The position numbers were made by a program, and so were the translations under genes. From positions 1 through 64,000 of IMG/VR virus record IMGVR_UViG_3300049856_000265: DNA of 64,000 bases. One strand, written 5' to 3'. Of the stretch, positions 687 through 49,673 are shown one piece after another (the first letter of the stretch is position 1; the number at the start of each line of letters is the position of its first letter). The stretch is from a virus. The notes under the pieces were generated by a model. The model saw nothing but the letters and a program-made list of their open reading frames with translations, was not told where the DNA came from and searched no databases.

Positions 687-689
687 GCA

Positions 690-5725: not shown

Positions 5726-5745
5726 AACAAATAAAGGTAGACAAT
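5726..5745 (+). promoter_or_regulatory. AACAAATA motif variant upstream of HNH gene
   Basis: AACAAATAAAGGTAGACA lies downstream of the capsid terminator. It is followed by a four-codon ATGAAGCCTTAA and then the HNH gene, so a new transcript probably begins here. The rest of the 5627-5772 gap shows nothing else I can name. Confidence 0.4.
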
Positions 5746-34727: not shown

Positions 34728-35687
34728 ATGCTTTTTAGGCCACGGGCGTCCTTTACGCCATTCGAGTATCCGCAACTATTTGAATATTTTACAAAACAAA
34801 ATCAAGCACATTGGCTTTGGACCGAAGTTTCCTTGGCTGGAGATATCGCTGATTGGAATTCCAAGCTTACTGAAACTGAAAAGAATGTAGTAACTGGTAT
34901 TCTTAAAGGTTTTACGCATGTCGAAACTTTAGTGGGAGAATATTGGGGCAACCGAGTATTCAAATGGTTCCCAAAGCCTGAGATTAAAGCTATGTGTTCT
35001 GCGTTTTCCAACATGGAAGCGGTACATGCAAAAGCATATAACTATCTAGCTGAGAGTTTAGGCTTAACTGAGTTCGAGGCTTATGCCAATGAACCTGCCG
35101 CCAAAGCTAAAATCGATCATATTTTGGATACGAATGGCAAGTCGCGTCCAGCCATTGCCAAGTCCTTAGCAGTGTTTAGTGGCTTTACTGAAGGCGTAAA
35201 CCTTTTTAGTAGTTTTGCCGTCCTTCTAAACTTCAGCCGTTTTAATAAACTTAAAGGGGTCGGGCAAATCATTAGCTGGTCTATTCGAGACGAGTCATTA
35301 CATTCGGAAGCCGGGTGCTGGCTATTTAGAATGCTAATCCAAGAGAATCCAGATATCTTAACTGAGGAGTTCAAGAAGGAAATCTATGAAGCTGCACGTT
35401 TGACAGTAAAGCTTGAAGATGACTTTATCGACATGGTATTTAAGACTGGATCTATTGAAGGTTTAGATCCGGTAGACCTTAAGCAGTATATCCGTTATCG
35501 AACTAATGCTAAGTTATCTGACCTAGGTTTTAAAAGCAATTGGAAGCAATTGGATAAAGCTGCGGTGGACCGTATTACTAGCTGGTTTGATATTTTAAGC
35601 TCAGGTCAAATCTTGACCGACTTCTTTGCATTAAAAAGTTCAGAGTATTCTAAAGGCCATGTAAATTGGGATGAGGTTTTTAAATGA
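34728..35687 (+). CDS. nrdB: Ribonucleotide reductase small (beta) subunit
   Basis: A 319-residue class I R2 protein. Iron-ligand segments visible are ETLVGEYWGN, NMEAVHAKAYNY and SIRDESLHSEAGCW, and the helix GVNLFSSFAVLLNF is typical. It generates the radical used by NrdA for NDP reduction. GGAG lies eight bases before the ATG. It overlaps nrdA by ATGA, so the subunits are made together. Confidence 0.9.
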   Translation: MLFRPRASFTPFEYPQLFEYFTKQNQAHWLWTEVSLAGDIADWNSKLTETEKNVVTGILKGFTHVETLVGEYWGNRVFKWFPKPEIKAMCSAFSNMEAVHAKAYNYLAESLGLTEFEAYANEPAAKAKIDHILDTNGKSRPAIAKSLAVFSGFTEGVNLFSSFAVLLNFSRFNKLKGVGQIISWSIRDESLHSEAGCWLFRMLIQENPDILTEEFKKEIYEAARLTVKLEDDFIDMVFKTGSIEGLDPVDLKQYIRYRTNAKLSDLGFKSNWKQLDKAAVDRITSWFDILSSGQILTDFFALKSSEYSKGHVNWDEVFK

Positions 35688-37386: not shown

Positions 37387-38016
37387 ATGAAGTTGAAATG
37401 CAATAAATGTAAAATAGAAAAACCGCTAACCATTGAATTCTTTAAAAAAGGTAAAACTAATAAGTACGGCTTTGCGCCTCAGTGTAAACTCTGTTTAAAC
37501 GCTTATCAAAAAGCACATAGAACTAAAAATAAAACGACAGTAAATGCTAAGCGTCAAGAGCATTATAAAAAAATACCTGATAAAGTAAGAACTTGGGATC
37601 AAAAATCAAAAGCTAATCGCAAAAAACGAATGCAAAATGATTCAGAATATGCAGCTTTTATTCGGAAACAGAATCTGGATCGTAGAAATAAACGGTTTAA
37701 AAATGAACCTAGTTATAAAATAGGGCATGCTCTTAGAACACGCATTAGGAAAGTTCTTAAAAATAGTAAAAAAGTAGGATCAGCGGTTAAATATTTAGGA
37801 TGTTCTTTAAATGAGCTTAAGCACCGTATAGAATCCCTATGGCAACCTGGTATGACTTGGGAAAACTATACAATAGACGGTTGGCATATTGATCATATCA
37901 AACCACTATCTTCATTTAATCTAGAAGATCTAGAACAGTTTAAACAAGCTTGCCATTATACTAATTTACAGCCCCTATGGGCTAAAGACAATTTAAGTAA
38001 ATCTGATAAAGTTTGA
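37387..38016 (+). CDS. HNH homing endonuclease (freestanding, nrdA-linked)
   Basis: A 209-residue protein. The N-terminus has a CNKCKIEK ... CKLC finger. The C-terminal HNH domain (WENYTIDGWHIDHIKPLSSF, CHYTNLQPLWAKDNLSKSDKV) is nearly identical to that of the gene at 5773. Between them the linkers differ. It lies at the nrdA stop, flanked by GCTTGCGAAGC copies; the downstream copy reads Ala-Cys-Glu-Ala-stop in the nrdA frame. Confidence 0.88.
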   Translation: MKLKCNKCKIEKPLTIEFFKKGKTNKYGFAPQCKLCLNAYQKAHRTKNKTTVNAKRQEHYKKIPDKVRTWDQKSKANRKKRMQNDSEYAAFIRKQNLDRRNKRFKNEPSYKIGHALRTRIRKVLKNSKKVGSAVKYLGCSLNELKHRIESLWQPGMTWENYTIDGWHIDHIKPLSSFNLEDLEQFKQACHYTNLQPLWAKDNLSKSDKV

Positions 38017-38019
38017 CAA

Positions 38020-38030
38020 GCTTGCGAAGC
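38020..38030 (+). repeat. Direct repeat, right copy (GCTTGCGAAGC)
   Basis: Copy of the nrdA 3' end, starting four bases after the HNH stop. With the following CTGA it encodes Ala-Cys-Glu-Ala and a stop, as expected for the original nrdA terminus. It marks the right border of the proposed insertion. Confidence 0.6.
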
Positions 38031-38047
38031 CTGAGTATACTGAAAGA

Positions 38048-38231
38048 GTAGTAGCGGCGTGGAAAGCTGGGATATTCCGGATACGGTAAAGTCCCTGGAG
38101 ACACGCAAAGCAACTTGGGGCGCTTATCGTTAAAAGGACCCAAATCGGACGCAGTAAAGCGGGACAGGCAGACCATCCGATCTTCCTCCGCATCAGTTTT
38201 CGAATAGCCAGACTCGCGACTGGCCTACTAC
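38048..38231 (+). ncRNA. Structured RNA A (unrecognised family, shared with 49248-49414)
   Basis: No ORF covers this stretch. GTAGTAG (38048-38054) pairs with CTACTAC (38225-38231) to close the domain. Next is CGGCGTGGAAAGCTG, then GGGA/TCCC around CCGGATACGG, then CTGGAGACACGCAA, with GCGTG/CACGC paired. A later part contains TTGGG/CCCAA and ATCGGA/TCCGAT helices. A hairpin GCCAG/CTGGC with a loop carrying TCGCG lies directly before the closing strand. The boxed blocks recur in the RNA at 49248 though helices differ in sequence. It lies upstream of the NMNAT-Nudix gene. Confidence 0.65.
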
Positions 38232-38242
38232 ATGTTTTGATA

Positions 38243-38262
38243 AACAAATAAGTATTGTAGGG
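38243..38262 (+). promoter_or_regulatory. AACAAATA motif variant before NMNAT-Nudix gene
   Basis: AACAAATAAGTATTGTAGG lies 12 bases after RNA A and 40 before the ATG at 38303. It would start a separate NAD-gene transcript, making RNA A a 3' part of the previous one or an independent RNA. Confidence 0.4.
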
Positions 38263-38302
38263 ATTCAGTTAGAATCCTGAATTTAAAACTTAGGAGATAA
38301 GT

Positions 38303-39382
38303 ATGGATTACCAACTCGCAGTATTCGTGGGTCGTCTGCAACCCTGTCATATCAGTCATTTAGAAGCTATCCGTCAAGGATTAGCAATTGCTGATAAACT
38401 TCTTATCATTATCGGATCTTCTAACGCTGCTCCCAATATTAAAAATCCCTTCAGCTACGATCAGCGCAAAGCCATGATCTTGGCTGCACTCGACGAATCG
38501 GAACAAAAACGAGTAACTTTTGAAGGTGTGCGGGACTACTATTATAATGAGAACAATTGGGTAACAGAAGTTCAGAATGCCGTAGCGCAACATTCTAAAC
38601 CCATGGATCAAATCGTAATGTTAAAACATTATAAGGATTCAAGTTCTTATTATCTTAATCTTTTCCCTCAATGGGATGCTCACCTAATCCAAAACACTAA
38701 GGTCATGAATGCCACAGACATTCGTAAATCGTTGTTTGATCCAGATAATCTTAAAGAAGTTACAGAATGGCGTGATAAAGGGATTGATAATTCAGCCTAT
38801 AAAGGTAATTTTCTAGATCGTACTAAAAAAATGCCATTAAATATAGAGCATTGGCTTATGCACAACTTTATAGGCACAGAAGCTCATTATGCTCTTATTA
38901 AAGAATATCAGTTTATAAAGGCGTATAAAGCATTATGGGCTAATTCCCCCTTTCCTCCTACTTTCGTGACGGCAGATGCTGTAGTTATTAAAAGCGGGCA
39001 TATTTTGCTAATTCGTCGTAAGTTCGAACCTGGCAAGGGACTTTATGCTTTGCCTGGAGGTTTCATTAAACAAACTGAATCCATTGAACAGGCGGCTATT
39101 CGTGAGCTTAAGGAAGAAACTAGGATTGACATTCCAAAGCCTATATTGCATACTTGTATTAAGGATATGAAAGTATTTGATCATCCAGAACGAAGTTTAA
39201 GAGGCAGGACCGTAACTCATGCTTACTTGATCAATCTTGGACAAGGTGAGCTTCCTGCTATTAAAGCATCGGATGACGCCCTGGGTGCCCAATGGGTCCC
39301 AATCCTTAGTTTGGGTAAGCTTGAATCTGAATTCTTTGAAGATCATTTTTCAATGATACATTATTTTGTAAGTAGGAGTTAA
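38303..39382 (+). CDS. Bifunctional NMN adenylyltransferase / Nudix hydrolase
   Basis: A 359-residue protein. Residues 1-180 are a nucleotidyltransferase: VGRLQPCHISHLEAIRQ (GRxQPxHxxH), SYDQRKAMI, and NATDIRKSLF (the late (S/T)xxxR-like motif). Residues about 205-359 are a Nudix domain with the box GGFIKQTESIEQAAIRELKE followed by ETRI. The pair makes NAD+ from NMN and ATP and may clear ADP-ribose-like dinucleotides. AGGAG precedes the ATG. It works with the NAMPT encoded at 40741. Confidence 0.9.
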   Translation: MDYQLAVFVGRLQPCHISHLEAIRQGLAIADKLLIIIGSSNAAPNIKNPFSYDQRKAMILAALDESEQKRVTFEGVRDYYYNENNWVTEVQNAVAQHSKPMDQIVMLKHYKDSSSYYLNLFPQWDAHLIQNTKVMNATDIRKSLFDPDNLKEVTEWRDKGIDNSAYKGNFLDRTKKMPLNIEHWLMHNFIGTEAHYALIKEYQFIKAYKALWANSPFPPTFVTADAVVIKSGHILLIRRKFEPGKGLYALPGGFIKQTESIEQAAIRELKEETRIDIPKPILHTCIKDMKVFDHPERSLRGRTVTHAYLINLGQGELPAIKASDDALGAQWVPILSLGKLESEFFEDHFSMIHYFVSRS

Positions 39383-39383
39383 T

Positions 39384-39695
39384 ATGCCATGCTATGATGG
39401 AAGAACTGATCAAGATTATGAAAATGAAAAGTTAAAGGATGCTCTTAAAGAATTAGGTAATGATTTGAATGATGTTACTATGATGCTTTGTTTAAGTCTT
39501 GCAGCAATTCAAGAGAAAGTGCCTCAACTTTATGAGGAATTAGTCTGCGCTACTCCTAAAATGTATAATTGGCATAATGAGCATAAAAAACTAGATGAAA
39601 AGCGTAAAGCCGAAGCGGAAGCCGTGTTGCATGAGATTAAAAAAACAGAAGAGACTTTAAAAAGGCTTAAAGCTGTTTACGATAGGAAGAAGTAG
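39384..39695 (+). CDS. Hypothetical helical protein
   Basis: A 103-residue protein beginning MPCYDGRTD, a start often seen in small phage proteins of unknown role. The rest is charged and helical (AEAEAVLHEIKKTEETLKRL). It lies between NMNAT-Nudix and the macrodomain in one transcript. Confidence 0.55.
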   Translation: MPCYDGRTDQDYENEKLKDALKELGNDLNDVTMMLCLSLAAIQEKVPQLYEELVCATPKMYNWHNEHKKLDEKRKAEAEAVLHEIKKTEETLKRLKAVYDRKK

Positions 39696-39696
39696 T

Positions 39697-40164
39697 ATGC
39701 TTAAATATGAAAAGATCTCCTTATTTGATGCGCCTAAAAATAGCCTAATCGTCCATGCCGTTAATGCAGGAGGTAGATGGGGTTCAGGAATTGCTAAGGA
39801 GTTTAAAAAGCGTTATCCTAAAGCTGAGACCTATTATATGGCTAGATGTGCTTTTGGAAGTACTCTTGCTAGATTTGGATGTCACCATGTTGGGGAAGAA
39901 CACCTCGTGGGATGGCTTGGCACTTCAGCAGGTTACGGGCATACTAAATCCCCAGAAGATGAAATCTTAATTTATACGACTTTAGCTATTCAAGAAATGC
40001 TAATTAGTATATCTAAAGAAGATCAAAACCTTCCACGTACTGTTTATTCTAATAAGTTCAATTCAGGACTTTTTGAAGTACCCTGGGAAAAGACGGAAAA
40101 GATCCTTAAAACTATTTTAAAACTCAATCCACATATTGAGTGGATTGTTTGTGACCCGACATGA
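39697..40164 (+). CDS. Macrodomain (ADP-ribose 1''-phosphate processing) protein
   Basis: A 155-residue protein, one complete macrodomain. Diagnostic segments are LIVHAVNAGGRWGSGIAKEF (phosphate-binding), FGCHHVGEE, and KFNSGLFEVPWEKTEKIL at the end. Such proteins bind or hydrolyse ADP-ribose derivatives. In this NAD gene cluster it may recycle or remove ADP-ribose formed by host defence enzymes. It overlaps the next HNH gene by four bases (ATGA). Confidence 0.85.
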   Translation: MLKYEKISLFDAPKNSLIVHAVNAGGRWGSGIAKEFKKRYPKAETYYMARCAFGSTLARFGCHHVGEEHLVGWLGTSAGYGHTKSPEDEILIYTTLAIQEMLISISKEDQNLPRTVYSNKFNSGLFEVPWEKTEKILKTILKLNPHIEWIVCDPT

Positions 40165-40724
40165 AAAGGCTTGAACGTCATATTAAAAATACAAGATGGA
40201 CTCCTGTTAGTTTTGTAAGAAAAGATAAATACGATACTTATTGGCTAATGCGATGCGAATGTGGTAAAGAAAAGATAGTTTTATATAAAAATTATAAACA
40301 AGGTAGATCTTTAAGTTGTGGTTGCTATAATAAAGAAGTAGTAACTGATCGTAAATCTACACAGCAAAAGCCGTTTGGAGAAAGTGCATTAAATCACTTA
40401 TTCTTAGTTTATAAAAAAGGAGCTAAAGAACGTAATCTTTCTTTTGAGTTAACTAAAGAGGAATTTAAGAAATTAACATCAGATATTTGCCATTTTTGTG
40501 GAGTAGAACCTAGACAATTAACAGGCAGAACTAAGTATACTCAAATTAATGGAGATTATACTTATAATGGAATTGATAGATTAGATAATAAAGAAGGTTA
40601 TACTATAGGTAATTGTGTAACTTGTTGTAAAAGATGTAATTATGCCAAGCACAGCAGTACTCAAGAAGAGTTTGAAACTTGGATTAAAAGACTTGTAGAT
40701 TTTCAATTGAGAAAATCGAAATAA
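40161..40724 (+). CDS. HNH homing endonuclease
   Basis: A 187-residue protein. N-terminal zinc-like segment: MRCECGKEKI...SLSCGCYNKE. Nuclease part: DICHFCGVEPRQL ... NGIDRLDNKEGYTIGNCVTCC KRCNYAKHS, with paired CxxC and the D-x-N motif. It is AT-rich and inserted between macrodomain and NAMPT. Confidence 0.85.
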   Translation: MKRLERHIKNTRWTPVSFVRKDKYDTYWLMRCECGKEKIVLYKNYKQGRSLSCGCYNKEVVTDRKSTQQKPFGESALNHLFLVYKKGAKERNLSFELTKEEFKKLTSDICHFCGVEPRQLTGRTKYTQINGDYTYNGIDRLDNKEGYTIGNCVTCCKRCNYAKHSSTQEEFETWIKRLVDFQLRKSK

Positions 40725-40740
40725 CGTAAGGAGTTTTATA

Positions 40741-42117
40741 ATGAATAGTTTTCTTAATAATTTAATACTTGATGTAGATTCTTATAAGTCGAGCCACTTC
40801 CTGCAGTACCCGCCGAATACTACTAAAGTCTTTTCGTATATCGAATCCCGTGGCGGTAAGTATGCCCAAACCGTTATGTTTGGACTTCAGCCTTTGCTTA
40901 AAAAGTTAGAGGTCGGCGTAACTAAAGAAAACGTCGAAGAAGCTAAGACTTTCTTTGAAGCACATGGCGAACCTTTCAACTACGATGGCTGGATGTATAT
41001 TGTAAATGAACTTAAGGGTAAGCTTCCTATTAAGATCAAGGCAGCTCCTGAAGGTAGCGTAATCCCAACAGGCAATGCTTTGGTAACAGTTGAGAATACT
41101 GATCCTAAATGCTATTGGTTAACTTCCTGGCTTGAAACTCAATTGCTTAGAGTTTGGTATCCCATTACAGTTGCTACCCAATCTTATACTATTAAGAAGA
41201 TCATCAAAAGCTACCTAGAAGCTACTTCAGATGATCCTGCAGCTGAGCTTCCTTTTAAGCTTCATGACTTTGGATCGCGTGGCGTATCCAGTGAAGAATC
41301 AGCAGCCCTTGGTGGCGCGGCACACCTTGTAAACTTCATGGGTTCTGATACAGTTGCTGGAGTAGTTCTGGCTAATCGAGTTTATAAATCTCCCATGTCT
41401 GGATTCTCTATTCCAGCTTCTGAGCACAGTTCTATTACCTCCTGGGGACGTGATGGAGAGCTGGCAGCCTATCGCAATATGCTGAAGCAGTTCGCTAAGC
41501 CTGGAGCCCTTGTAGCCTGCGTATCGGATAGTTATGATCTTTATAATGCCGTTGAAAACCTGTGGGGCGGTGAACTTAAAAAAGACATCGAAGAATCAGG
41601 AGCTATCCTTATCGTGCGACCTGACAGCGGTAATCCAGTAGAAGTAGTTCTTAAGACTACTCAGCTTTTGGATAGCCGTTTTGGCAGTACCTACAATACC
41701 AAAGGCTTTAAAGTTCTTAATCATGTTAGAGTTATCCAAGGTGACGGGATCAATGAAGAATCGATTCGCCAGATCCTTGAGGTTTTGAAAGCTAATGGCT
41801 ATTCTGCAACCAATATCGCTTTCGGTATGGGCGGTGCGTTGCTTCAGCAAGTAAATCGGGATACTCAGAAGTTTGCCATGAAGTGTAGTCATGCCGTAAT
41901 CAATGGTAAGTCAGTTGAAGTGTACAAAGATCCTGTTACAGACCATGGTAAGAAGTCTAAGAAAGGCATGCTTGATCTAGTCTATCGTATGAATAAGTTT
42001 GAAACTATTCAAGGCGATAATGCTTGGGGTTCAGTACTTAAAGTAGTATTCCAAGATGGTAAAGTTACTAAAGAATATACTTTAGATGAAATCAGGGCCT
42101 TGTCAAATAAGTTTTAG
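40741..42117 (+). CDS. nadV: Nicotinamide phosphoribosyltransferase (NAMPT/NadV)
   Basis: A 458-residue protein, the usual length. Motifs: LDVDSYKSSHFLQYPP, HDFGSRGVSSEESAALGGAA, IPASEHSSITSWG (catalytic His region), VSDSYDLYNAV, IVRPDSGNPVEVV and IAFGMGGALLQQVNRDTQKF. It makes NMN from nicotinamide and phosphoribosyl pyrophosphate. The next step is NMNAT, encoded at 38303. TAAGGAG lies upstream of the ATG. The phosphoribosyl supply is from the host. Confidence 0.94.
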   Translation: MNSFLNNLILDVDSYKSSHFLQYPPNTTKVFSYIESRGGKYAQTVMFGLQPLLKKLEVGVTKENVEEAKTFFEAHGEPFNYDGWMYIVNELKGKLPIKIKAAPEGSVIPTGNALVTVENTDPKCYWLTSWLETQLLRVWYPITVATQSYTIKKIIKSYLEATSDDPAAELPFKLHDFGSRGVSSEESAALGGAAHLVNFMGSDTVAGVVLANRVYKSPMSGFSIPASEHSSITSWGRDGELAAYRNMLKQFAKPGALVACVSDSYDLYNAVENLWGGELKKDIEESGAILIVRPDSGNPVEVVLKTTQLLDSRFGSTYNTKGFKVLNHVRVIQGDGINEESIRQILEVLKANGYSATNIAFGMGGALLQQVNRDTQKFAMKCSHAVINGKSVEVYKDPVTDHGKKSKKGMLDLVYRMNKFETIQGDNAWGSVLKVVFQDGKVTKEYTLDEIRALSNKF

Positions 42118-42134
42118 TATGCTAATCTAAGAGC

Positions 42135-42917
42135 ATGGAACCTAAATGGTTTGTTCTTGGAGATGTTCATGGAAAGTACGATAACTTGATGAAGCTTATT
42201 AAGCTGATTCGAGATGATGGTGGTTTAGACTTCAAGAATGGTGATATGCTAGTCCAACTTGGAGATCGTTGTGATCGTGGCCCTGATTCTTTCCGAGTTA
42301 ATAACTTTTTCTATAAGCTTGAAAAGCGCTATCCTAGCCAAGTGATATGTTTAAAGGGCAATCATGAAGATATGATGCTTAAGGCTGCACTTAACATTGA
42401 TAATTATGGATTTATGCTTAATGGCGGCGGCGCTACGATGAAATCTTATAAGTGCTATAGCAACAATCCTCAAGTTCTTGGATACAAGCTTCAAGATTGT
42501 GGACATTTACTTTGGCATGACCGTCAACCTATCTTTTATGAAACTGATAAGTATATTTTTACTCATGCACCTATTCCTCTGCCAGAATATCGGCATAACC
42601 AGGCTTCTCGTGATAACTTTAGAGAGGATAATGAGACTTGCTTTTGGAGCTATGGCGGTGATAAGTTAGTTGATTGGGTTGATCCTGAACCCGTACCTGG
42701 TAAAATCGCGGTATCTGGCCATGTTCATGGAATGCATAAGCGTAAAACAGATAACCAGTATATCGTCCCTGGAATCCGTCAAGTAGGTAGTAGTTTTTGC
42801 ATCGATACTGGCAGCGGTTGCCACAAGGCAGGGTATCTTACAGCTTTAGAGCTTACAACAATGACTCAGTATACTAGCAATGGAGAGGTCCTAATAGGAG
42901 AGTTTATAAATGAGTAA
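42135..42917 (+). CDS. PPP-family serine/threonine or ApaH-like phosphatase
   Basis: A 260-residue protein. Metal motifs: LGDVHGKYDN, LGDRCDRGPDS, CLKGNHEDMML, FTHAPIPLPEY and SGHVHGM, the set shared by lambda-type protein phosphatases and diadenosine tetraphosphatases. It may remove phosphates from host proteins or split dinucleotides. Placed after NAMPT. Confidence 0.85.
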   Translation: MEPKWFVLGDVHGKYDNLMKLIKLIRDDGGLDFKNGDMLVQLGDRCDRGPDSFRVNNFFYKLEKRYPSQVICLKGNHEDMMLKAALNIDNYGFMLNGGGATMKSYKCYSNNPQVLGYKLQDCGHLLWHDRQPIFYETDKYIFTHAPIPLPEYRHNQASRDNFREDNETCFWSYGGDKLVDWVDPEPVPGKIAVSGHVHGMHKRKTDNQYIVPGIRQVGSSFCIDTGSGCHKAGYLTALELTTMTQYTSNGEVLIGEFINE

Positions 42918-43266
42918 CAAAGTTGACTATAATACACCTGCCCATAAAGGGCATTGGATTAGTGGATCCTTTTCTAATCCAGCTACTCCTGATGAGATTG
43001 CTCAAGCTGTAAAAGATGGTATGATCCCAATGAGCGAACTTAAGGACGGCCAATGGTATGCTGGGCATTGCAGGAATGCTAGCAAGGCTCAATGGAAAGC
43101 CGAGGCTAAAGAGTTTAGCTATTGGCGTTATAAGTTTGGTAACTACTTTCTGGATACGGCTAATCATATCGAAGAAGATAACGGATTTGATTGTTTTATC
43201 CCTGTAGCAGAAACTACACCTGAAACTAAGCATTTGGAGGCTAAAGATGAATCAGATAAAGGTTGA
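42910..43266 (+). CDS. Hypothetical protein
   Basis: A 118-residue protein with a central DGMIPMSELKDGQWYAGHCRNAS segment and a KFGNYFLDTANHIEEDNGFDCFIP end, the sort of pattern seen in phage accessory proteins. Start overlaps the phosphatase and the end overlaps thyX. Role unknown. Confidence 0.6.
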   Translation: MSNKVDYNTPAHKGHWISGSFSNPATPDEIAQAVKDGMIPMSELKDGQWYAGHCRNASKAQWKAEAKEFSYWRYKFGNYFLDTANHIEEDNGFDCFIPVAETTPETKHLEAKDESDKG

Positions 43267-43939
43267 ACTTCAAGAATGGATGGGTTCAGATCGGCAAATT
43301 GCGGAAGCCGCTTGGACTAGTAGCCTCACCTTAGAATCCAAAGATACGAGGACTCAAGAAGACATAGCCCGAGTAGTTCAAATGCTAATAAAAGACAAAC
43401 ATGCTAGCCCTATTGAGGCTGTTGTCTTTAGATTTTGGATTAAAATGCCTATATCAACGGATCGTCAGCATATGACTCACCGTATTGCTAGTCATAATGG
43501 TATGTCTGGACGTTATAGGACTATGCCTGCCGAGTTTCAAGTAGTTCCAGATGACGTTAAAGATATTATTAATAAATTCCCAGCAAACTCCTTATGTAAT
43601 TGGGTAGACGAGTATCAAGCTATTTGCAGATCTTCTAATGATTGGTATCAAAATGTAGCGGCGGCGGCTAGGCCGTTAATTAGTACAGAACATATTACTA
43701 ATACTGAATTTAAACGACTTCGTGAGTTCTTTCGTGGCGTACTACCTCAGAATAATATTACAGAGCGCACTACAATTATGAATCTTCGTAGCTTTGCTAA
43801 TTATCAAAAGCTTCGTAATTCAGAACATGCCCAACCTGAAATTAAGCAAGTAGCTGAACTTATGCTTAAAGCCGTAATAGAAGCTAATGTTTGTCCAGTT
43901 GCTATTGCAGCTTTGCAAACTAATGGCTGGAATATCTAA
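43247..43939 (+). CDS. thyX: FAD-dependent thymidylate synthase
   Basis: A 230-residue protein. The ThyX signature is THRIASHNGMSGRYR, with the usual leading Arg replaced by Thr. The C-terminal LPQNNITERTTIMNLRSF is also typical. It converts dUMP to dTMP using a flavin and folate. GGAGG lies upstream of the ATG, and the start is inside the preceding gene by 20 bases. Confidence 0.93.
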   Translation: MNQIKVELQEWMGSDRQIAEAAWTSSLTLESKDTRTQEDIARVVQMLIKDKHASPIEAVVFRFWIKMPISTDRQHMTHRIASHNGMSGRYRTMPAEFQVVPDDVKDIINKFPANSLCNWVDEYQAICRSSNDWYQNVAAAARPLISTEHITNTEFKRLREFFRGVLPQNNITERTTIMNLRSFANYQKLRNSEHAQPEIKQVAELMLKAVIEANVCPVAIAALQTNGWNI

Positions 43940-43946
43940 CTTTAGT

Positions 43947-43966
43947 AACAAATATTAATAGTAAAC
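43947..43966 (+). promoter_or_regulatory. AACAAATATT motif variant after thyX
   Basis: AACAAATATTAATAGTAAAC is in the 51-base gap after thyX, 25 bases before the next ATG. Weaker match than the copy at 3071. Confidence 0.35.
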
Positions 43967-43990
43967 GAATAGCTTTTAAGAAGGAATAAA

Positions 43991-44212
43991 ATGGCAGCAA
44001 TAACAGATAGACTTAAGACAGCACTTTTACATGCTTTTGGGCTTCCTGAAACATCACTTGAGCTAATCAATGTGATTAATGAGCAAAATCAACAAATTAC
44101 ACAACTTACAACGAAATTTGACGATTTACTTGTTAAGTTAGATTCCGATGCTGGAGTTAGTGATACTGACTATCTTGCTTCACTTGAAGTTTCAGAAGAT
44201 TGGGATTCATAA
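43991..44212 (+). CDS. Hypothetical small protein
   Basis: A 73-residue protein with a helical heptad run (LINVINEQNQQITQLTTKFDD). No family is recognised. AAGGAATAAA precedes the ATG. Confidence 0.55.
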   Translation: MAAITDRLKTALLHAFGLPETSLELINVINEQNQQITQLTTKFDDLLVKLDSDAGVSDTDYLASLEVSEDWDS

Positions 44213-44216
44213 TAAA

Positions 44217-44480
44217 ATGCCGAATACGCCACTTTCTCAATTAAATTATAGACCTGGACATCATTCAGAAGAAGCTGAGCTTTTGCATCACGAGCTACGA
44301 GTTTCTATTAACTCAATATCGGATGTACTAGAGACTAAAGTATCAAAAGAACAGTTTCTAGCTATAGTAGATAGCTTTACACAGAAAATAGAAACTTTAG
44401 ACGCAGATAATAAAGTACTATTAAACATCATTAGTCAACAAATTCAGTCACTTAGTGATCGAATTACAAACTTAGAATAA
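44217..44480 (+). CDS. Hypothetical coiled-coil protein
   Basis: An 87-residue protein read from ATG 44217, four bases after the previous stop. The second half is coiled coil (DADNKVLLNIISQQIQSLSD). With its neighbours it may be a small complex. Unknown role. Confidence 0.55.
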   Translation: MPNTPLSQLNYRPGHHSEEAELLHHELRVSINSISDVLETKVSKEQFLAIVDSFTQKIETLDADNKVLLNIISQQIQSLSDRITNLE

Positions 44481-44498
44481 TTAAAAAGGAATAAAATA

Positions 44499-44975
44499 AT
44501 GACAACTGTAACTAAACTAACCGGCCTTGCCTCACAATCTTACTCTGAAACAGACGGAACAGCACTTGTTCAAACTTCTACAATGTCGGATGCTGTAGAG
44601 CAAGCATCATTGACTTTGGCCATGGCCACTGCTGGCGTTAATAAAGGAACTACAGAACTAGAGCTAGTAAATGCTGCTGGAGTTACCGTTGCTACTATTA
44701 AAGGTAAATACGAAACAAACCTTACTGTTAACTTGACTGCAACAGAAGGCGCTTCTGCTAATAACGGTTCTACTTCTCAAGCTATTACTTGGAATGTAGG
44801 TTTGGACGCTTTTGGCCCAGGCTCAAAGATTAAAGCAACTTTCTCAGGTAAGATTGCAAAAGAAACTGTTACAGGTTCTGGATATGCAAGTACTATTAGC
44901 GGTAGTGGACATACGGTCATTACCTATCCTTTTAAAGCTGTTTCTGTTGAAGTTATTGAAGGTTCTGACGGTTAA
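44499..44975 (+). CDS. Hypothetical beta-rich protein (decoration-like)
   Basis: A 158-residue Ser/Thr/Gly/Ala-rich protein with alternating hydrophobics (TELELVNAAGVTVATIKGKY). It resembles capsid decoration or tail-tube-like proteins, but sits in the metabolic region. It is followed by a strong terminator, so it may be strongly expressed. Confidence 0.6.
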   Translation: MTTVTKLTGLASQSYSETDGTALVQTSTMSDAVEQASLTLAMATAGVNKGTTELELVNAAGVTVATIKGKYETNLTVNLTATEGASANNGSTSQAITWNVGLDAFGPGSKIKATFSGKIAKETVTGSGYASTISGSGHTVITYPFKAVSVEVIEGSDG

Positions 44976-45006
44976 GTTCTAACCTTTAGCTAAGTTTAAA
45001 GCTAGT

Positions 45007-45043
45007 CCTCGGTAGGTTCTTCGGGATCTATCGAGGTTTTTTT
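45007..45043 (+). terminator. Rho-independent terminator overlapping next ribosome-binding site
   Basis: CCTCGGTAG GTTC pairs with GGAT CTATCGAGG around a TTCG loop, followed by TTTTTTT. The ATG at 45044 directly follows the T-run, and GAGG in the right arm is seven bases from that ATG. Confidence 0.9.
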
Positions 45044-45973
45044 ATGTCTAATAAAAATGTAGTTATATTTATAGAAGGCGGTTTAGGCGATCAGGTTGAT
45101 TCTGAGCCGGTAGTGCGCAAACTAAAGGTGCTATATCCAAACAGTAAAGTAATATTAATTACACAACATTCTGAAGTCTTTGATCACCTAGGTTTAGATA
45201 TCTACAAACCCGGTCAGTTTATAGTGCCTGACGACGCTTTTATAATCAATACCCTAAAGCCTATAAATCACGTTTCTAAAAACTACATGGTACATAAGCT
45301 ATGTCATGGCGTAGACTATGCTAGTTTACAATGTTTAAAAGGTACTTTAACTGCTAAAGAGAAAGAAATAACCCTTAGCTTTGAGCCTAAGCACCTAGCT
45401 CATGTTGAAAAGCTATGTGGAGATACGAGTAAGCTAGTAGTTCTCCATCCTGGTCTTGGATGGGCTTCCAAAACCTTCCCAGACGACGTATGGGACTCTT
45501 GGATTGACTTTCTTCTGGCTAACGGCTATAAGGTGGCCCTAATAGGTAAACGTGTTAACGAGGCGCAGGGAGCGTTAAAACTAAAACCACGAACTCATCC
45601 AAACTTTGTAGATTTAATAGATAAACTTAGCCTTAAAGAAACATTCGCATTGCTGTCTAAAGCCCCTATTCTTATATCCAATGATTCGTCTCCTATTCAT
45701 ATTGCAGGAGCTTTTGACAACTATATAGGCGTTATAGCTACTTGCAAGCATCCAGAATTAATACTACCTTATAGGGGCGGTTTTGGTAATGTCTGGCATA
45801 AAGCAAAATCTCTTGAAAAGGCTAGGATGTATGATGAATATAATCATCTACCTTCAAAAGAACTATCTCTAATCTATTACCTTCCCGATGGCATAACTAG
45901 CATTCGTCCGTATCTACCGTCTCCTTTGGACATCTTATGCTATGTTCAATCTATATTAGTTGACAAGACTTAA
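45044..45973 (+). CDS. Glycosyltransferase family 9-like protein
   Basis: A 309-residue protein. The heptosyltransferase-type pattern is visible: VIFIEGGLGDQVDSEPVVRK near the start, VVLHPGLGWASKTFPDDVWDS WIDFL at about 127, LIGKRV, and LISNDSSPIHIAGAF plus YRGGFGNVW near 223-250. Such enzymes transfer sugars from nucleotide donors to LPS or other acceptors. A phage copy might modify host surface or its own DNA or protein. Its RBS is within the terminator hairpin. Confidence 0.75.
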   Translation: MSNKNVVIFIEGGLGDQVDSEPVVRKLKVLYPNSKVILITQHSEVFDHLGLDIYKPGQFIVPDDAFIINTLKPINHVSKNYMVHKLCHGVDYASLQCLKGTLTAKEKEITLSFEPKHLAHVEKLCGDTSKLVVLHPGLGWASKTFPDDVWDSWIDFLLANGYKVALIGKRVNEAQGALKLKPRTHPNFVDLIDKLSLKETFALLSKAPILISNDSSPIHIAGAFDNYIGVIATCKHPELILPYRGGFGNVWHKAKSLEKARMYDEYNHLPSKELSLIYYLPDGITSIRPYLPSPLDILCYVQSILVDKT

Positions 45974-46008
45974 GTTACTTAGTCTCTACTCCCACCACAA
46001 AGTACTTG

Positions 46009-46022
46009 CAAATTGAGTAACT
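46009..46022 (+). promoter_or_regulatory. CAAATTGAGTAACT element, copy 1
   Basis: CAAATTGAGTAACT is 19 bases upstream of the PD-(D/E)XK start. An identical 14-base copy precedes the gene at 47500. TATAGT follows closely. It may be part of an early promoter or an operator. Confidence 0.4.
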
Positions 46023-46040
46023 TTATAGTAAGCTGAGGGT

Positions 46041-47213
46041 ATGAGTAAACCTAACCGACTTTCCCATTCGGCATGCAATAAGTTTCAGCAATGCCCTAAA
46101 GCTTACCAATATCATTACATCGATAAGTTGCGTTCAACGGTAACTTCGTCAGCGCTCATTTTCGGTTCAGCAATTGACTTGGCCCTCGGAGCCATGCTTG
46201 AAGATCATAAAAACAATAATCTAGACATCCTAGGCCAAGCTTATGAAAGCGTATTCGTGCGCAATTGGCGGCGCGGCAAAGTAAACAACGTTGAAGTAGA
46301 TCTATTTGATAATCCAGATATTGTTTATGCTGCCGCCGATCTTGATATTAAGCTTTTTAATCAGAAGGATTGGATGCAGATCTTGTCAGCTGGTCAGAAC
46401 ATCTATCTAGGTATTAATGCTTTTAAAGGAATTACTCCTGAAGCCATTATGGCCACTTATGATCTAGTGCTGGCTGAAAAGGAAGCTAAAGGCTGGGATA
46501 ACTTGCCAGTAAATGCTAGGAAGTTCTATAACTATGTCAATTGGCTTTGCTTAACCAAGAAAGGCATCTTGATGCTTGAGGCTTACCGTACTGAAGTCTT
46601 GCCTAAAATCAAGAAAGTACTAGCTATCCAAAAAGAAATCAATATTAGTAACGATTCAGGTGATAGTATTATTGGCTATATTGATCTAGTTGCCGAGATG
46701 GATGACGGTAAGGTTTATGTTTTGGATAACAAGACGGCTGCTCGTGCCTACGACTGGGATGCAGTTGAAAAGTCAACCCAGTTAGCTCTCTATGTACATG
46801 CGGTTGAAAATGAATATAATACTCGTCATGCCGGGTTTATCGTCCTAGGCAAAGCTATCGATAAAAACCTGGTTAAAACTTGTGCGTTTTGTAAAAAAGA
46901 TCTTAGCGGTAGCCGAGTCAAGACTTGTGATGAGATGCTTCAGAATGGATTACCTAGTAAAATGTACCGATGCGGCGGCGAGATCCAAGAAGTAGCGCAT
47001 CCTAAAGCTACGGTTCAGATCTTGCTTGGAACTATTCCAGATCAAGTAGATACTTTGGTTATGGAAAATATGATGGATATTAATGCTGCTATTAAAACTG
47101 AGGTATTCCCGCGTAATTTGAATGCTTGTGATAAACCTTTTCCCTGTCAGTTTAAATCGCTTTGCTGGAAGAATAGTATGCAAAACTTGGTCGATACGAA
47201 GGAGAAAGAATGA
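46041..47213 (+). CDS. PD-(D/E)XK nuclease, Cas4/RecB-like with Cys cluster
   Basis: A 390-residue protein. N-terminal SHSACNKFQQCPKAYQYHYI has the first Cys of an Fe-S-type set. The nuclease core is IIGYIDLVAEMDDGKVYVLD NKTAA (D, then D-x-K) with a later QLALYVHAVE. A Cys-rich insertion at about 274-318 (CAFCKKDL, CDEM, YRCGGE) may bind zinc, and the C-terminus has CDKPFPCQFKSLC. It probably degrades or trims DNA ends for recombination with the ERF protein downstream. Confidence 0.82.
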   Translation: MSKPNRLSHSACNKFQQCPKAYQYHYIDKLRSTVTSSALIFGSAIDLALGAMLEDHKNNNLDILGQAYESVFVRNWRRGKVNNVEVDLFDNPDIVYAAADLDIKLFNQKDWMQILSAGQNIYLGINAFKGITPEAIMATYDLVLAEKEAKGWDNLPVNARKFYNYVNWLCLTKKGILMLEAYRTEVLPKIKKVLAIQKEINISNDSGDSIIGYIDLVAEMDDGKVYVLDNKTAARAYDWDAVEKSTQLALYVHAVENEYNTRHAGFIVLGKAIDKNLVKTCAFCKKDLSGSRVKTCDEMLQNGLPSKMYRCGGEIQEVAHPKATVQILLGTIPDQVDTLVMENMMDINAAIKTEVFPRNLNACDKPFPCQFKSLCWKNSMQNLVDTKEKE

Positions 47214-47440
47214 GTAAACTTAAGTACTATCTAGTAGAAAATGAAAGAATGACTTTAAATAAACTACATAATGCAGATTTATTGCTCAATGCACGTAATA
47301 GAGATTGTATGTCACGCATGTCTGAAGAACTTTTAGGAACTATCGGTGGGCTTACTTTTGAACAACGGGCTACTTTTGAGAAAATCTTCAAAATGGGCTA
47401 TATTGCAGGTTGTTGCTATTATCCAGAAGAACAAGATTAA
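47210..47440 (+). CDS. Hypothetical protein
   Basis: A 76-residue helical protein overlapping the nuclease stop by four bases. Ends with GYIAGCCYYPEEQD. No known family. Confidence 0.55.
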   Translation: MSKLKYYLVENERMTLNKLHNADLLLNARNRDCMSRMSEELLGTIGGLTFEQRATFEKIFKMGYIAGCCYYPEEQD

Positions 47441-47455
47441 TAGGATTATACTTTA

Positions 47456-47469
47456 CAAATTGAGTAACT
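47456..47469 (+). promoter_or_regulatory. CAAATTGAGTAACT element, copy 2
   Basis: Second copy, 30 bases upstream of ATG 47500. Here TTTACA and TATCCT are spaced 17 bases apart around the element, a passable host-type promoter. Confidence 0.45.
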
Positions 47470-47499
47470 AGTGCTATCCTCAAAATATAGGAGATCTAA

Positions 47500-47745
47500 A
47501 TGAGTAAAGTAGGACAATCGATCAGGCTTAAGCAAAGCGAAACCAAGCCTTATGTAACTTTAGGCATCGCGACAACTGACGAAGGCTATGAACTTCGCAG
47601 GGTAACGGTAAGTGGTCTTGAAGTACAAGCTTTTAAAGTATTGCTTAAATCTAAAGAACGTGCGGAAGTAATGCAGCAATTGCAACTCGAGTTGAGTGCT
47701 TATATTATTAACTTTAATCGTGGTGAAACTAAGGAGACTAAATAA
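47500..47745 (+). CDS. Hypothetical protein
   Basis: An 81-residue protein with mixed beta and helical segments and no recognised motif. ATAGGAGAT precedes the ATG. It shares its stop with the HNH start. Confidence 0.55.
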   Translation: MSKVGQSIRLKQSETKPYVTLGIATTDEGYELRRVTVSGLEVQAFKVLLKSKERAEVMQQLQLELSAYIINFNRGETKETK

Positions 47746-48239
47746 TGGAAGAAATGTGGGAATCTATAAAAGATTATCCCGATTATCAAGTAAGTAATTC
47801 TGGTAAAGTTTATTCTCTAAAGAATAATATGGAATTAAAAGGTCAAGTTGAGCGTTCTGGGTATAGGTTAGTTAAGCTTTTTATTAATGGAAAAGCTAAA
47901 TCTTGGATGATCCATCGACTTGTAGCCAATGCTTTTATGGATAACTGGAATAATAAGTCTCAAGTCAATCATAAAGATGGAAATAAACAAAATAATTACT
48001 TTCTTAATCTAGAATGGGTTACGGCTTCTGAAAACCAATTGCATGCTATAAAAGAAGGTCTTGTACGGCATTGTGAAGGTGAAACGCACTTTAATTGTAA
48101 GCTTAGTTCTAATGATGATGCTGAAATTGCAGAATTATACAAAACGCAATCACAAGTACAAATTGCTAAAATGTATGAGATTTCTCAGTCTAGTGTTGGA
48201 CGGGCTTTAAATCGTTATTATAAGAAAGGAATTAAATAA
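47745..48239 (+). CDS. NUMOD4/HNH homing endonuclease
   Basis: A 164-residue protein. N-terminal WESIKDYPDYQVSNSGKVYS is the NUMOD4 DNA-binding motif. HNH core: WMIHRLVANAFM, QVNHKDGNKQNNYFLNLEWV. The C-terminal part (SQVQIAKMYEISQSSVGRAL) is a helix-turn-helix (NUMOD1-like). It lies immediately before the ERF gene. Confidence 0.92.
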   Translation: MEEMWESIKDYPDYQVSNSGKVYSLKNNMELKGQVERSGYRLVKLFINGKAKSWMIHRLVANAFMDNWNNKSQVNHKDGNKQNNYFLNLEWVTASENQLHAIKEGLVRHCEGETHFNCKLSSNDDAEIAELYKTQSQVQIAKMYEISQSSVGRALNRYYKKGIK

Positions 48240-48905
48240 ATGAATCGTTCTGAATCAATTAGTAAATTGGCTGTAGCTTTGCTTAAAGCTCAAGCAAGTA
48301 TGGGTAATGCCAGCAAAGGCGCATCTAATCCTTACTTTAAATCGAGCTATGCCGATCTTAACTCTATTCGTGAAGTCGTAACTCCAGCTCTTAATGCTAA
48401 TGGCATTACGGTGCTTCAACCTACTACTACTTTGGATGGTAGGGCTTTTGTTGAAACATTGCTTCTCCATGAATCAGGTGAATTCTTGTCAAGTTTGACT
48501 GAAATTACAGTAGCTAAAGCTAATGATCCTCAAGCGGCAGGTAGCGCTATTAGCTATGCCCGTCGATATGGTCTGCAATCCTTCCTTAGTGTTGGTGCAG
48601 TAGATGATGATGGCGAAAAGGCCATGGCTCGAGGTCCTAGCCCTGCTCAACAGAAATGTGAGGCTAAAGCCGCGTTTAAGGCCGCCACCGCCGCCGTCTC
48701 AGAACCCCCTACAGTGCCCGCTACGCTTCCTGCAAGCGCCGTAGCTGAACGTTTGGCCGTAACTAGGCCCGAGGTATCGGCTGCTCCTGTCGCAGCTCCT
48801 GAGGCCGTTAAAACGCCTAAAAAGACCCCGTTTAATAAGCCGGGCAAGGTAGCAACCCCAACTCCTATAAGTAATGGTACTGGCGACGCTGGAGGTTGGT
48901 CATGA
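48240..48905 (+). CDS. ERF-family single-strand annealing protein
   Basis: A 221-residue protein. ERF signature: KASNPYFKSSYADL-type segment (ASNPYFKSSYADLNSIREVV), LNANGITVLQ, LLHESGEF and AISYARRYGLQSFLSVGAVD DDGE. The second half is an Ala/Pro-rich linker and a short tail ending GTGDAGGWS. It anneals homologous strands in phage recombination. Confidence 0.9.
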   Translation: MNRSESISKLAVALLKAQASMGNASKGASNPYFKSSYADLNSIREVVTPALNANGITVLQPTTTLDGRAFVETLLLHESGEFLSSLTEITVAKANDPQAAGSAISYARRYGLQSFLSVGAVDDDGEKAMARGPSPAQQKCEAKAAFKAATAAVSEPPTVPATLPASAVAERLAVTRPEVSAAPVAAPEAVKTPKKTPFNKPGKVATPTPISNGTGDAGGWS

Positions 48906-49000
48906 AATGGGTAATTGCATTGGTAGCTTTGGCTGCTTGTGTGACTTCAGGTCAAGTAAGAGAACATAATCACGATACTCATAATAAAGGAGTTAATTAA
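48902..49000 (+). CDS. Tiny His-rich lipoprotein
   Basis: A 32-residue protein starting inside the ERF stop (ATGA). MKWVIALVALAACVTSG has a clean LAAC lipobox. The mature peptide of about 20 residues contains EHNHDTHN, a possible metal-binding patch. This short outer-membrane type lipoprotein could be an o-spanin-like or exclusion peptide; neither is shown. Confidence 0.6.
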   Translation: MKWVIALVALAACVTSGQVREHNHDTHNKGVN

Positions 49001-49001
49001 A

Positions 49002-49238
49002 ATGTCTGAATCGAATAGTAAATATGTAAAAGTAGGTCAAATTGTTTTGAATACGGATAAAGAGGGTAAAGAGTATCAACAGTTAATTCTCAATAAAGAA
49101 TTTATTGAAAATGCTAATAATCTTATTAAATTGGCTTTTCTTGATAAGAGCGGTGGTCGTCGCTTTAATATTTTTGAGCCATTTGAAGGTGCACCATCTT
49201 TTGTTAAATATAATGTTTGTGTAAAAAAAGCAGAATAG
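49002..49238 (+). CDS. Hypothetical protein
   Basis: A 78-residue protein. AAAGGAG lies before the start. A helical middle (EFIENANNLIKLAFL) is followed by a beta-like end. No recognised family. The structured RNA B follows it. Confidence 0.55.
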   Translation: MSESNSKYVKVGQIVLNTDKEGKEYQQLILNKEFIENANNLIKLAFLDKSGGRRFNIFEPFEGAPSFVKYNVCVKKAE

Positions 49239-49247
49239 TAATACAAT

Positions 49248-49414
49248 TTGTGCAACGGCGTGGAAAGCTGTGGAGCTAGTGATTAACGATAGTCGGCTTA
49301 AGAGCAACGGATCACACGATATGTACCACTGGAGACACGCAACGAGCCGTCGTAGGGGCCATGTAAGAATGATCGGCAATTCCTCTAAGCCAGAGTCGCG
49401 TCTGGCTTGCACAA
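49248..49414 (+). ncRNA. Structured RNA B (same family as 38048-38231)
   Basis: TTGTGCAA (49248-49255) pairs perfectly with TTGCACAA (49407-49414). Inside are CGGCGTGGAAAGCTG and CTGGAGACACGCAA, identical to RNA A, with GCGTG/CACGC and an inner TGG/CCA and GTGAT/ATCAC helix instead of A's GGGA/TCCC. TTCCTC is also shared. The hairpin GCCAGA/TCTGGC with loop GTCGCG directly precedes the closing strand, as in A. No ORF spans it. Confidence 0.65.
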
Positions 49415-49490
49415 TTCATTTTGAGTTGGCTAGGTCGCGCCTAGTCCTGACCTGATGGTACCAGGTGACTCCGGGGAGAGACCCGACCAT
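49415..49490 (+). other. Run of three hairpins downstream of RNA B
   Basis: GGCTAGG/CCTAGTC with another TCGCG loop (about 49428-49447), ACCTG/CAGGT (49450-49466) and CGGG/CCCG (about 49472-49485). They fill the rest of the gap before the ribosome-binding site of the gene at 49503, so they may be part of RNA B or control that gene. Confidence 0.4.
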
Positions 49491-49502: not shown

Positions 49503-49673
49503 ATGAAAAAATCAGCTAATGAACTTGCTAAAGGCTCTAGTCGTCGAAGACGAAATGAACGAGCAAATACCTATCAAGCTATATTGAATGGCGAATTGGT
49601 ATTGCCTAAAGTTAGAGTTAAAAAGCCTACTAAAAAGCAACGTCGTCTTGCTAAGGCGGCGCTAAATGGATAA
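49503..49673 (+). CDS. Small basic protein
   Basis: A 56-residue, strongly basic protein (SRRRRNERAN; RVKKPTKKQRRLAKAALNG). Start at 49503 is backed by TAGGAG. Probable nucleic-acid binding. It overlaps the next gene by eight bases. Confidence 0.6.
   Translation: MKKSANELAKGSSRRRRNERANTYQAILNGELVLPKVRVKKPTKKQRRLAKAALNG

What the first reader, a model, noticed from the sequence alone, without database searches (positions are those of the whole stretch)
38048..49414. Two intergenic RNAs share motif blocks with compensatory closing helices
RNA A (38048-38231) and RNA B (49248-49414) both contain CGGCGTGGAAAGCTG, CTGGAGACACGCAA and a hairpin GCCAG(A)..TCGCG..CTGGC in the same order. Each is closed by a perfect helix directly touching the first and last block, but the helix sequence differs completely (GTAGTAG/CTACTAC versus TTGTGCAA/TTGCACAA). 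The inner helix also differs (GGGA/TCCC versus TGG/CCA). Conserved loops with changing but paired stems are what a functional RNA family shows. I do not recognise the family. They lie before the NMNAT-Nudix gene and before a small basic protein gene.
Basis: partly seen in the sequence, partly recalled or inferred. Interest (0 to 1): 0.75.

Follow-up and report, generated by a model that had tools for sequence, protein, structure and literature searches.

The report
New family of structured phage RNAs
Two intergenic stretches of this phage genome are members of a previously uncatalogued family of folded RNAs, found here in about 84 distinct versions in uncultured phages and a few bacterial genomes (probably prophages), with a near-invariant core, helices that change sequence but stay paired, and inner modules that related phages swap; what the RNA does is not known.

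Summary
RNA A (38048-38231) and RNA B (49248-49414) have the blocks and closing helices described. Scans of IMG/VR and GTDB gave about 84 distinct homologues; Rfam 15 has no match. On 47 members, 98.1% of pair cells are paired and 17 of 21 pairs show double changes (0 of 500 shuffles reach the covariation score). 74 of 77 hits found by sequence alone carry the closing helix and 3' hairpin. A reversed-sequence control gave 0 hits. New facts: a sigma70 -10 box sits so that transcription starts at the first base of P1 (14 members, 10 with a -35; RNA A is one), and a U-rich, G-poor tract follows P1. The RNA looks like a defined unit whose ends meet in P1. Inner modules are swapped between related phages, and some look like tRNA. 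Downstream genes are diverse and no pairing to ribosome-binding sites was found, which argues against an ordinary riboswitch. Function is inferred only: a discrete, possibly trans-acting, modular phage RNA (about 0.42), a cis-acting leader/attenuator (about 0.33), or a ribozyme (about 0.15).

The parts
38013..38041 (+). sigma70-type promoter of RNA A: TTGACA 38013-38018, 17-nt spacer, TATACT 38036-38041; predicted start of transcription 38048 = first base of P1
   Evidence: 11 of 12 consensus matches; the same -10 position recurs in 14 of 84 members, 10 with a -35
38048..38231 (+). RNA A, whole element (184 nt)
   Evidence: descriptor hit, covariation, fold
38048..38054 (+). RNA A P1 5' strand GTAGTAG
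   Evidence: pairs with 38225-38231; P1 covaries in homologues
38055..38061 (+). RNA A junction CG (38055-38056) and P2 5' strand GCGTG (38057-38061)
   Evidence: near-invariant; P2 covaries GC/GC to GT/AC
38062..38068 (+). RNA A internal loop, 5' side GAAAGCT
   Evidence: consensus RRAAGCT in 84 members
38069..38095 (+). RNA A P3 module
   Evidence: P3 base covaries; module interchangeable in relatives
38096..38106 (+). RNA A internal loop 3' side TGGAGA (38096-38101) and P2 3' strand CACGC (38102-38106)
   Evidence: T(G/A)GAGACAC near-invariant
38107..38206 (+). RNA A variable domain (100 nt)
   Evidence: 30-163 nt and unalignable across the family, but conserved within sub-groups
38207..38231 (+). 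RNA A P5 hairpin GCCAG-ACTCGCGA-CTGGC (38207-38224) abutting P1 3' strand CTACTAC (38225-38231)
   Evidence: loop consensus AGT(A/C)GCGN; P5 covaries
49248..49414 (+). RNA B, whole element (167 nt), between two genes, 9 nt after a stop codon
49248..49255 (+). RNA B P1 5' strand TTGTGCAA
   Evidence: pairs with 49407-49414
49256..49269 (+). RNA B junction CG, P2 5' strand GCGTG (49258-49262), internal loop 5' side GAAAGCT (49263-49269)
   Evidence: as for RNA A
49270..49329 (+). RNA B P3 module
   Evidence: GTGG/CCAC base, covaries in the family
49330..49340 (+). RNA B internal loop 3' side TGGAGA (49330-49335) and P2 3' strand CACGC (49336-49340)
   Evidence: as for RNA A
49341..49388 (+). RNA B variable domain (48 nt)
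   Evidence: possible pseudoknot GCCG/CGGC with TAGGGG/CCTCTA, by eye only
49389..49414 (+). RNA B P5 hairpin GCCAG-AGTCGCGT-CTGGC (49389-49406) and P1 3' strand TTGCACAA (49407-49414)
38303..39382 (+). gene after RNA A: NMNAT (cytidylyltransferase-like) plus Nudix protein, 71 nt downstream
   Evidence: one member of the downstream set matches PF01467 and one PF00293; distance
49503..49673 (+). gene after RNA B: small basic protein, 56 aa, 88 nt downstream
   Evidence: ORF with AGGAG upstream

Best explanation
Shown: RNA A and B belong to a phage-borne family of structured RNAs (121-276 nt, median 177) with one architecture. P1 is a closing helix, usually 6-9 bp, of free sequence. It is followed by CG, then P2 (GYGTG/CACRC) with a near-invariant internal loop RRAAGCT/T(G/A)GAGA, a variable P3 module, a variable domain, and a P5 hairpin with loop AGT(A/C)GCGN stacked against the 3' strand of P1. 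Strongly indicated: the RNA's natural ends are at P1. In members with their own promoter the predicted transcript starts at the first base of P1, and a terminator-like U-tract follows the last base of P1. Inferred (about 0.42): it is a discrete RNA, made from its own promoter or released from operon mRNA, that acts as an RNA or RNA-protein particle. The constant core (internal loop plus P5 loop) would bind a widespread host component or a phage protein, and the exchangeable P3 and variable modules would set what the particle acts on. Readthrough past the U-tract would express the next gene.
For: Covariation 0.700 against 0.172 in shuffles, 0 of 500. P1 and P5 present in 74 of 77 sequence-only hits. 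-10 box at the one position that puts the start at P1: 14 of 84, against 0-3 per equal window clear of that position. U-tract after P1: T 0.49 and G 0.07 in members with a nearby gene, against T 0.28 and G 0.17 upstream of ordinary ribosome-binding sites; T-run of 4 or more in 16 of 28 against 8%. Downstream genes share no function. 28 of 85 have no gene start within 100 nt (counted from the table). No pairing of P3 or variable domain with the downstream 60 nt beyond chance. Modules swap between related loci: L092 copy 2 and L107 share the variable domain but not P3, L092 copy 2 and L095 share P3 but not the variable domain, and L107 and L118 have identical modules although their flanks are about 84% identical. 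Two copies with different modules in one genome are common.
Against: No expression data. About 47% of members lie within 60 nt of a downstream start codon on the same strand, which also fits a leader acting on that gene. 30 of 85 follow a stop codon within 20 nt, so many copies have no obvious promoter and would need processing. No common partner protein was found; the carrier against non-carrier comparison is dominated by phage relatedness. Module swapping may reflect nothing more than recombination at conserved cores.
Confidence: 0.42

Rival explanations
1. Cis-acting leader: the RNA works on its own transcript. Either it is an attenuator (P1 plus U-tract as a regulated terminator in front of the next gene) or a nascent-RNA element that modifies RNA polymerase, like HK022 put RNA.
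For: Transcription predicted to start at P1 and the RNA to precede genes. U-tract after P1. RNA and genes on the same strand in runs of same-direction genes; 16 of 20 lie nearer the start than the end of the run. putL likewise lies just downstream of an early promoter and needs no protein (PMC9378689).
Against: Position in the run is not significant against gaps of similar size (P about 0.16). No alternative pairing with the ribosome-binding region. Downstream genes unrelated. About a third have no gene start within 100 nt. Swappable modules are not expected.
Confidence: 0.33
2. Self-cleaving ribozyme: the invariant internal loop and P5 loop form an active site, and cleavage frees flanking mRNAs.
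For: Compact invariant core with free peripheral domains and gene-independent spread through phages and metagenomes, as known ribozyme classes show (general knowledge). No gene association.
Against: No match to any ribozyme family in Rfam. No conserved nucleotides just outside P1. A transcription start at P1 and a U-tract after it are not needed by a ribozyme. Catalysis is not testable here.
Confidence: 0.15
3. Metabolite riboswitch controlling the downstream gene.
For: 5' leader position in about half of members; conserved loops.
Against: Downstream genes range over DNA polymerase, GroEL, ParB, head protease, NMNAT, kinases and unknowns. No expression platform by pairing.
Confidence: 0.06
4. 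A DNA-level element (hairpin origin, attachment or packaging site) rather than an RNA.
For: Closing inverted repeat; tandem copies in some phages.
Against: G-U pairs among the changes; promoter placed exactly at P1 and U-tract on one side only; orientation follows the genes.
Confidence: 0.03

Closest known systems
HK022 put RNA (putL/putR), RNA polymerase-binding antiterminator
   Same: Phage RNA element next to early promoters; putL is just downstream of its promoter, and the structure begins at transcript base 3 (PMC9378689); no dedicated protein needed
   Different: put is about 70 nt with two stem-loops and no closing helix around the whole; here 121-276 nt, one closing helix, internal loop and variable modules, U-tract after P1. 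No sequence resemblance was looked for beyond Rfam.
phi29-type prohead RNA (pRNA)
   Same: Phage ncRNA of about 120-180 nt with paired ends (general knowledge)
   Different: No Rfam match; two copies with different modules in one genome; carriers are unrelated to phi29 as far as seen
GOLLD, ROOL and OLE large ornate RNAs
   Same: Large structured RNAs of unknown function; GOLLD and ROOL are associated with phages (PMC12286853 seen as a search hit; association from general knowledge)
   Different: Those are about 500-800 nt and are in Rfam (general knowledge); no match here
Pistol, hatchet, hammerhead and theta self-cleaving ribozymes
   Same: Small conserved core, variable periphery, no fixed gene partner, metagenomic spread (hatchet and pistol papers PMC4604424, PMC4604425)
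   Different: No Rfam match; core layout different; cleavage untested
tRNA / tRNA-Sec
   Same: Some P3 modules carry a T-arm and acceptor-like stem; best case L020 scores 20.6 bits, E 0.077, to tRNA-Sec
   Different: Below the gathering score (47); only about 5 of 84 members

Membership tests
Any Rfam 15 family | Match at the curated gathering score | tested here: not met
   0 matches in the whole window and in 15 homologue loci; 0 up to E=5 for RNA A and B; the weak matches are all below gathering score
Functional structured RNA family (this family) | Compensatory base changes across independent homologues | tested here: met
   17 of 21 pairs with double changes, 0 of 500 shuffles
Functional structured RNA family (this family) | Homologues not selected for structure also form it | tested here: met
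   74 of 77 sequence-only hits
Metabolite riboswitch | Downstream genes of one pathway | tested here: not met
Metabolite riboswitch | Alternative pairing with terminator or ribosome-binding site | tested here: not met
   no excess pairing of P3 or variable domain with the downstream 60 nt; P1 strand against downstream z -2.0, weak
Metabolite riboswitch | Specific ligand | not testable with these tools
   needs in-line probing
Self-cleaving ribozyme | Site-specific self-cleavage | not testable with these tools
   needs an in vitro transcript
put-like antiterminator RNA | Suppresses downstream terminators in cis through RNA polymerase | not testable with these tools
   needs a reporter; position in the gene run inconclusive
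put-like antiterminator RNA | About 70 nt, two stem-loops | tested here: not met
   121-276 nt, P1-closed; put dimensions from PMC9378689
tRNA / tRNA-like RNA | Cloverleaf recognised by tRNA models | tested here: not met
   ARAGORN finds none in the window or at the RNAs; best sub-threshold tRNA-Sec match in L020
Trans-acting small RNA | Own promoter and terminator | tested here: inconclusive
   promoter at P1 in 14 of 84; U-tract in about 44%, but P1 encloses the whole domain, so it is not a standard terminator hairpin

The most novel reading that the evidence does not exclude
A phage-specific RNA machine: one constant core that docks on a widespread host component, carrying exchangeable recognition modules (P3, sometimes tRNA-like, and the variable domain) that phages recombine as cassettes, for example to counter host defences or redirect host RNA processing, with no known counterpart.
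Probability: 0.25. Interest if true: 0.88.

Novelty: categorically new. Interest (0 to 1): 0.72.

Why it matters
A family of about 84 distinct structured RNAs, with covariation as strong as in established classes, is missing from Rfam. It was not found in a collection of 50,697 phage records (where only near-exact stretches of about 18 bases could be seen), and no paper in the held library prints its core in a phage context. The grade 'categorically new' refers to the RNA family, which has no detectable relative, not to a proven new mechanism. Exact ends, a near-invariant core and cassette-like modules give a testable object. If it is a trans-acting particle, a polymerase-modifying leader or a ribozyme, it would add a class of phage RNA; each option is separated by one simple experiment.

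Tried and rejected
Riboswitch for NAD or nucleotide genes: rejected, downstream genes diverse. RBS sequestration and P3-variable-domain kissing: no excess pairing. Kissing of the P5 loop: weak and inconsistent signs (z -1.6 and +1.5). Early-operon position as evidence for antitermination: 16 of 20 nearer the start, but P about 0.16 against gaps of similar size. Common partner protein: HNH endonucleases (assigned by eye) in 15 of 20 carriers against 4 of 17 controls, and a shared structural and terminase gene set; confounded by phage lineage. tRNA neighbourhood: 12 tRNAs in 0.8 Mb, only two within 150 nt. Empty sites: no locus lacking the RNA between the same genes was found in the held data. 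Close relatives of the RNA A downstream gene gave two loci at 39-41% identity and those of the gene after B gave none; the two were not followed further. MAFFT on full lengths fails because of the variable domains (one reference in that call was also on the wrong strand), so covariation was counted on a core of fixed length with loops cut out. A single-sequence fold of B does not recover P2; energies are not unusual (z about -1). The last viral scan was mis-specified by one base (4 N instead of 5), so its zero says nothing about variants of the 3' loop.
Full report
What was checked. RNA A and RNA B are in the sequence as described. The P1-P2 junction is CG. The P5 hairpin touches the 3' strand of P1. 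The minimum-energy fold of RNA A shows P1, P2, P3 and P5 together. For RNA B the single-sequence fold keeps P1 and P5 but not P2, so the evidence for P2 in B is comparative. Folding energies are not unusual (z about -1).

Homologues. Gapped pattern scans of IMG/VR with the two core strands and with a relaxed 5' loop, plus one scan of GTDB genomes, gave hits that were filtered by a descriptor: 85 distinct sequences, one of which (L012) was dropped, leaving 84. A reversed-sequence control over 3.2 Mb gave 0 hits against 139 places, duplicates included. The GTDB hits that fit are in an Armatimonadota MAG, a Gammaproteobacteria MAG, Paludibacterium purpuratum and Cerasicoccus frondis; the fifth hit (L084) lacks the structure. 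A consensus core found nothing credible in 50,697 phage records or 72,556 plasmids, although only near-exact stretches of about 18 bases would show there.

Is the structure real? On 47 distinct members with loops cut out, 98.1% of 987 pair cells are standard pairs, 17 of 21 pairs have changes on both sides, 260 cells are doubly changed (64 expected in shuffles), and the covariation score is 0.700 against 0.172 in shuffles, with no shuffle reaching it; sliding partners by 1-3 columns drops the score to about 0.1. Because P1 and P5 were located partly by complementarity, a test without that bias was made. Of 77 distinct hits defined by core sequence alone, 74 have P5 plus P1; 92% reach z>=28, against 12% when the upstream strands are swapped between members. 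Per-position conservation over 84 members: C G G (C/T) G T G (G/A) (A/G) A A G C T for the 5' core, T (G/A) G A G A C A C (G/A) C for the 3' core, and (A)(G) T (A/C) G C G N for the P5 loop. Part of this conservation is fixed by the search patterns; the P5 loop is not.

Ends of the RNA. Upstream of P1 a TATAAT-like hexamer falls 14-11 nt before the 7-bp P1 in 14 of 84 members, and 10 of these also have a -35 with at most 2 mismatches; windows of the same width clear of this position hold 0-3. This puts the transcription start on the first base of P1. RNA A is one of these: TTGACA 38013, 17-nt spacer, TATACT 38036, predicted start 38048. RNA B has no such promoter and lies 9 nt after a stop codon. 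Directly after P1 there is a U-rich, G-poor tract: T 0.44-0.68 and G at most 0.08 at positions +1 to +4. It is not the usual stretch before a ribosome-binding site: in members with a nearby gene T is 0.49 and a T-run of 4 or more occurs in 16 of 28, against 0.28 and 8% upstream of 332 ordinary genes in the same loci. P1 is mostly 6-9 bp (67 of 84).

Context. The RNA lies between genes on the same strand. In 30 of 85 the upstream stop codon is within 20 nt, and in 40 of 85 a downstream start is within 60 nt. Downstream products have no common function: DNA polymerase, GroEL, helicase, primase, NMNAT, Nudix, ParB, UvsX, head protease and unknowns; upstream products are also mixed, with recombination and nucleotide genes frequent. 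P3 and variable domains do not pair with downstream sequence or with each other beyond chance. The RNA tends to lie early in runs of same-direction genes, but not significantly against gaps of similar size.

Modules. P3 (13-88 nt) and the variable domain (30-163 nt) differ almost completely between members, yet they are not neutral filler. L107 and L118 have identical P3 and variable domains while their flanks are about 84% identical. L092 copy 2 shares its variable domain with L107 but not its P3, and its P3 with L095 but not its variable domain. A variable-domain type beginning GGGAAGYRCGGGAACAAGCGC recurs in phages that otherwise differ. Some P3 modules look like tRNA (L020, L052, L127, L007, L061). 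Two copies with different modules in one genome are seen in the window's own phage and in at least five others.

Reading. That this is a conserved structured RNA family is as good as shown. That its ends are at P1 is strongly indicated. What it does is inference. The paired and sharply defined ends, lack of a gene partner, two-copy genomes and swapped modules favour a discrete RNA that acts as a particle with a constant core and exchangeable modules (0.42). A cis-acting leader, either an attenuator with P1 as terminator stem or a polymerase-modifying element comparable to HK022 putL (PMC9378689), is nearly as likely (0.33). A self-cleaving ribozyme is possible (0.15). A metabolite riboswitch is unlikely (0.06) and a DNA-level element very unlikely (0.03).

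Limits. No expression data. Only exact core patterns could be scanned, so divergent relatives are under-counted (L054 holds one). Papers could be searched only in open full text, not in supplementary tables, so an unnamed listing of this motif elsewhere cannot be excluded.

Noticed in passing
window 49426-49490: A second structured stretch between RNA B and the next gene: GTTGG / CCGAC closing pair, hairpin CTAGGTCGCGCCTAG whose loop resembles the P5 loop, then TTTT and AGGAG. Its sequence recurs in no other held locus; folding energy is ordinary (z -0.7).
   Followed up: partly
window 5773-6492 and 37387-38016: Two similar ORFs (blocks 73% and 85% identical) that look like HNH homing endonucleases; one ends 31 nt before RNA A. 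Family assigned by eye only.
   Followed up: no
window 53-1556: Glycine-rich, repeat-filled coding sequence (many GGTGCAGGT-type copies), possibly a collagen-like or tail-fibre protein.
   Followed up: no
window 34728-37369: Genes before RNA A; the second (35684-37369) matches phage ribonucleotide reductase at DNA level, so RNA A lies in a nucleotide-metabolism operon.
   Followed up: partly
L020 minus strand (copy at 5728 of the reversed locus), L052 5907, L127 minus strand, L007 136, L061 minus strand: P3 modules with a T-arm (GTTCGA) and acceptor-like stem, as if tRNA sequence had been captured; the L020 module matches tRNA-Sec at E 0.077.
   Followed up: partly
L020, L068, L092, L113, L110: Two copies within about 500 nt. 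In L020 and L092/L113 both copies have the same P1 but different inner modules.
   Followed up: yes
L054 minus strand, just upstream of its main copy: A divergent relative: P1 GAGACCA/TGGTCTC, P2 GCGTG/CACGC, P5 GCCAGGGTCGCGTCTGGC, but internal loop AAGTCGCT / TGGGA.
   Followed up: partly
L023 minus strand near 2409 and L108 near 2600: P5-like hairpins with remnants of the core (GGCGGGGAAATG; CCACTGGAGACACGC), probably further divergent copies.
   Followed up: no
L176 7098 (same phage record as L052): A second copy about 46 kb from the first, with junction CC instead of CG.
   Followed up: no
L107 5225 and L118 2496: The whole inner RNA is identical although flanking genes are only about 84% identical, so it is under strong constraint or recently exchanged.
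   Followed up: partly
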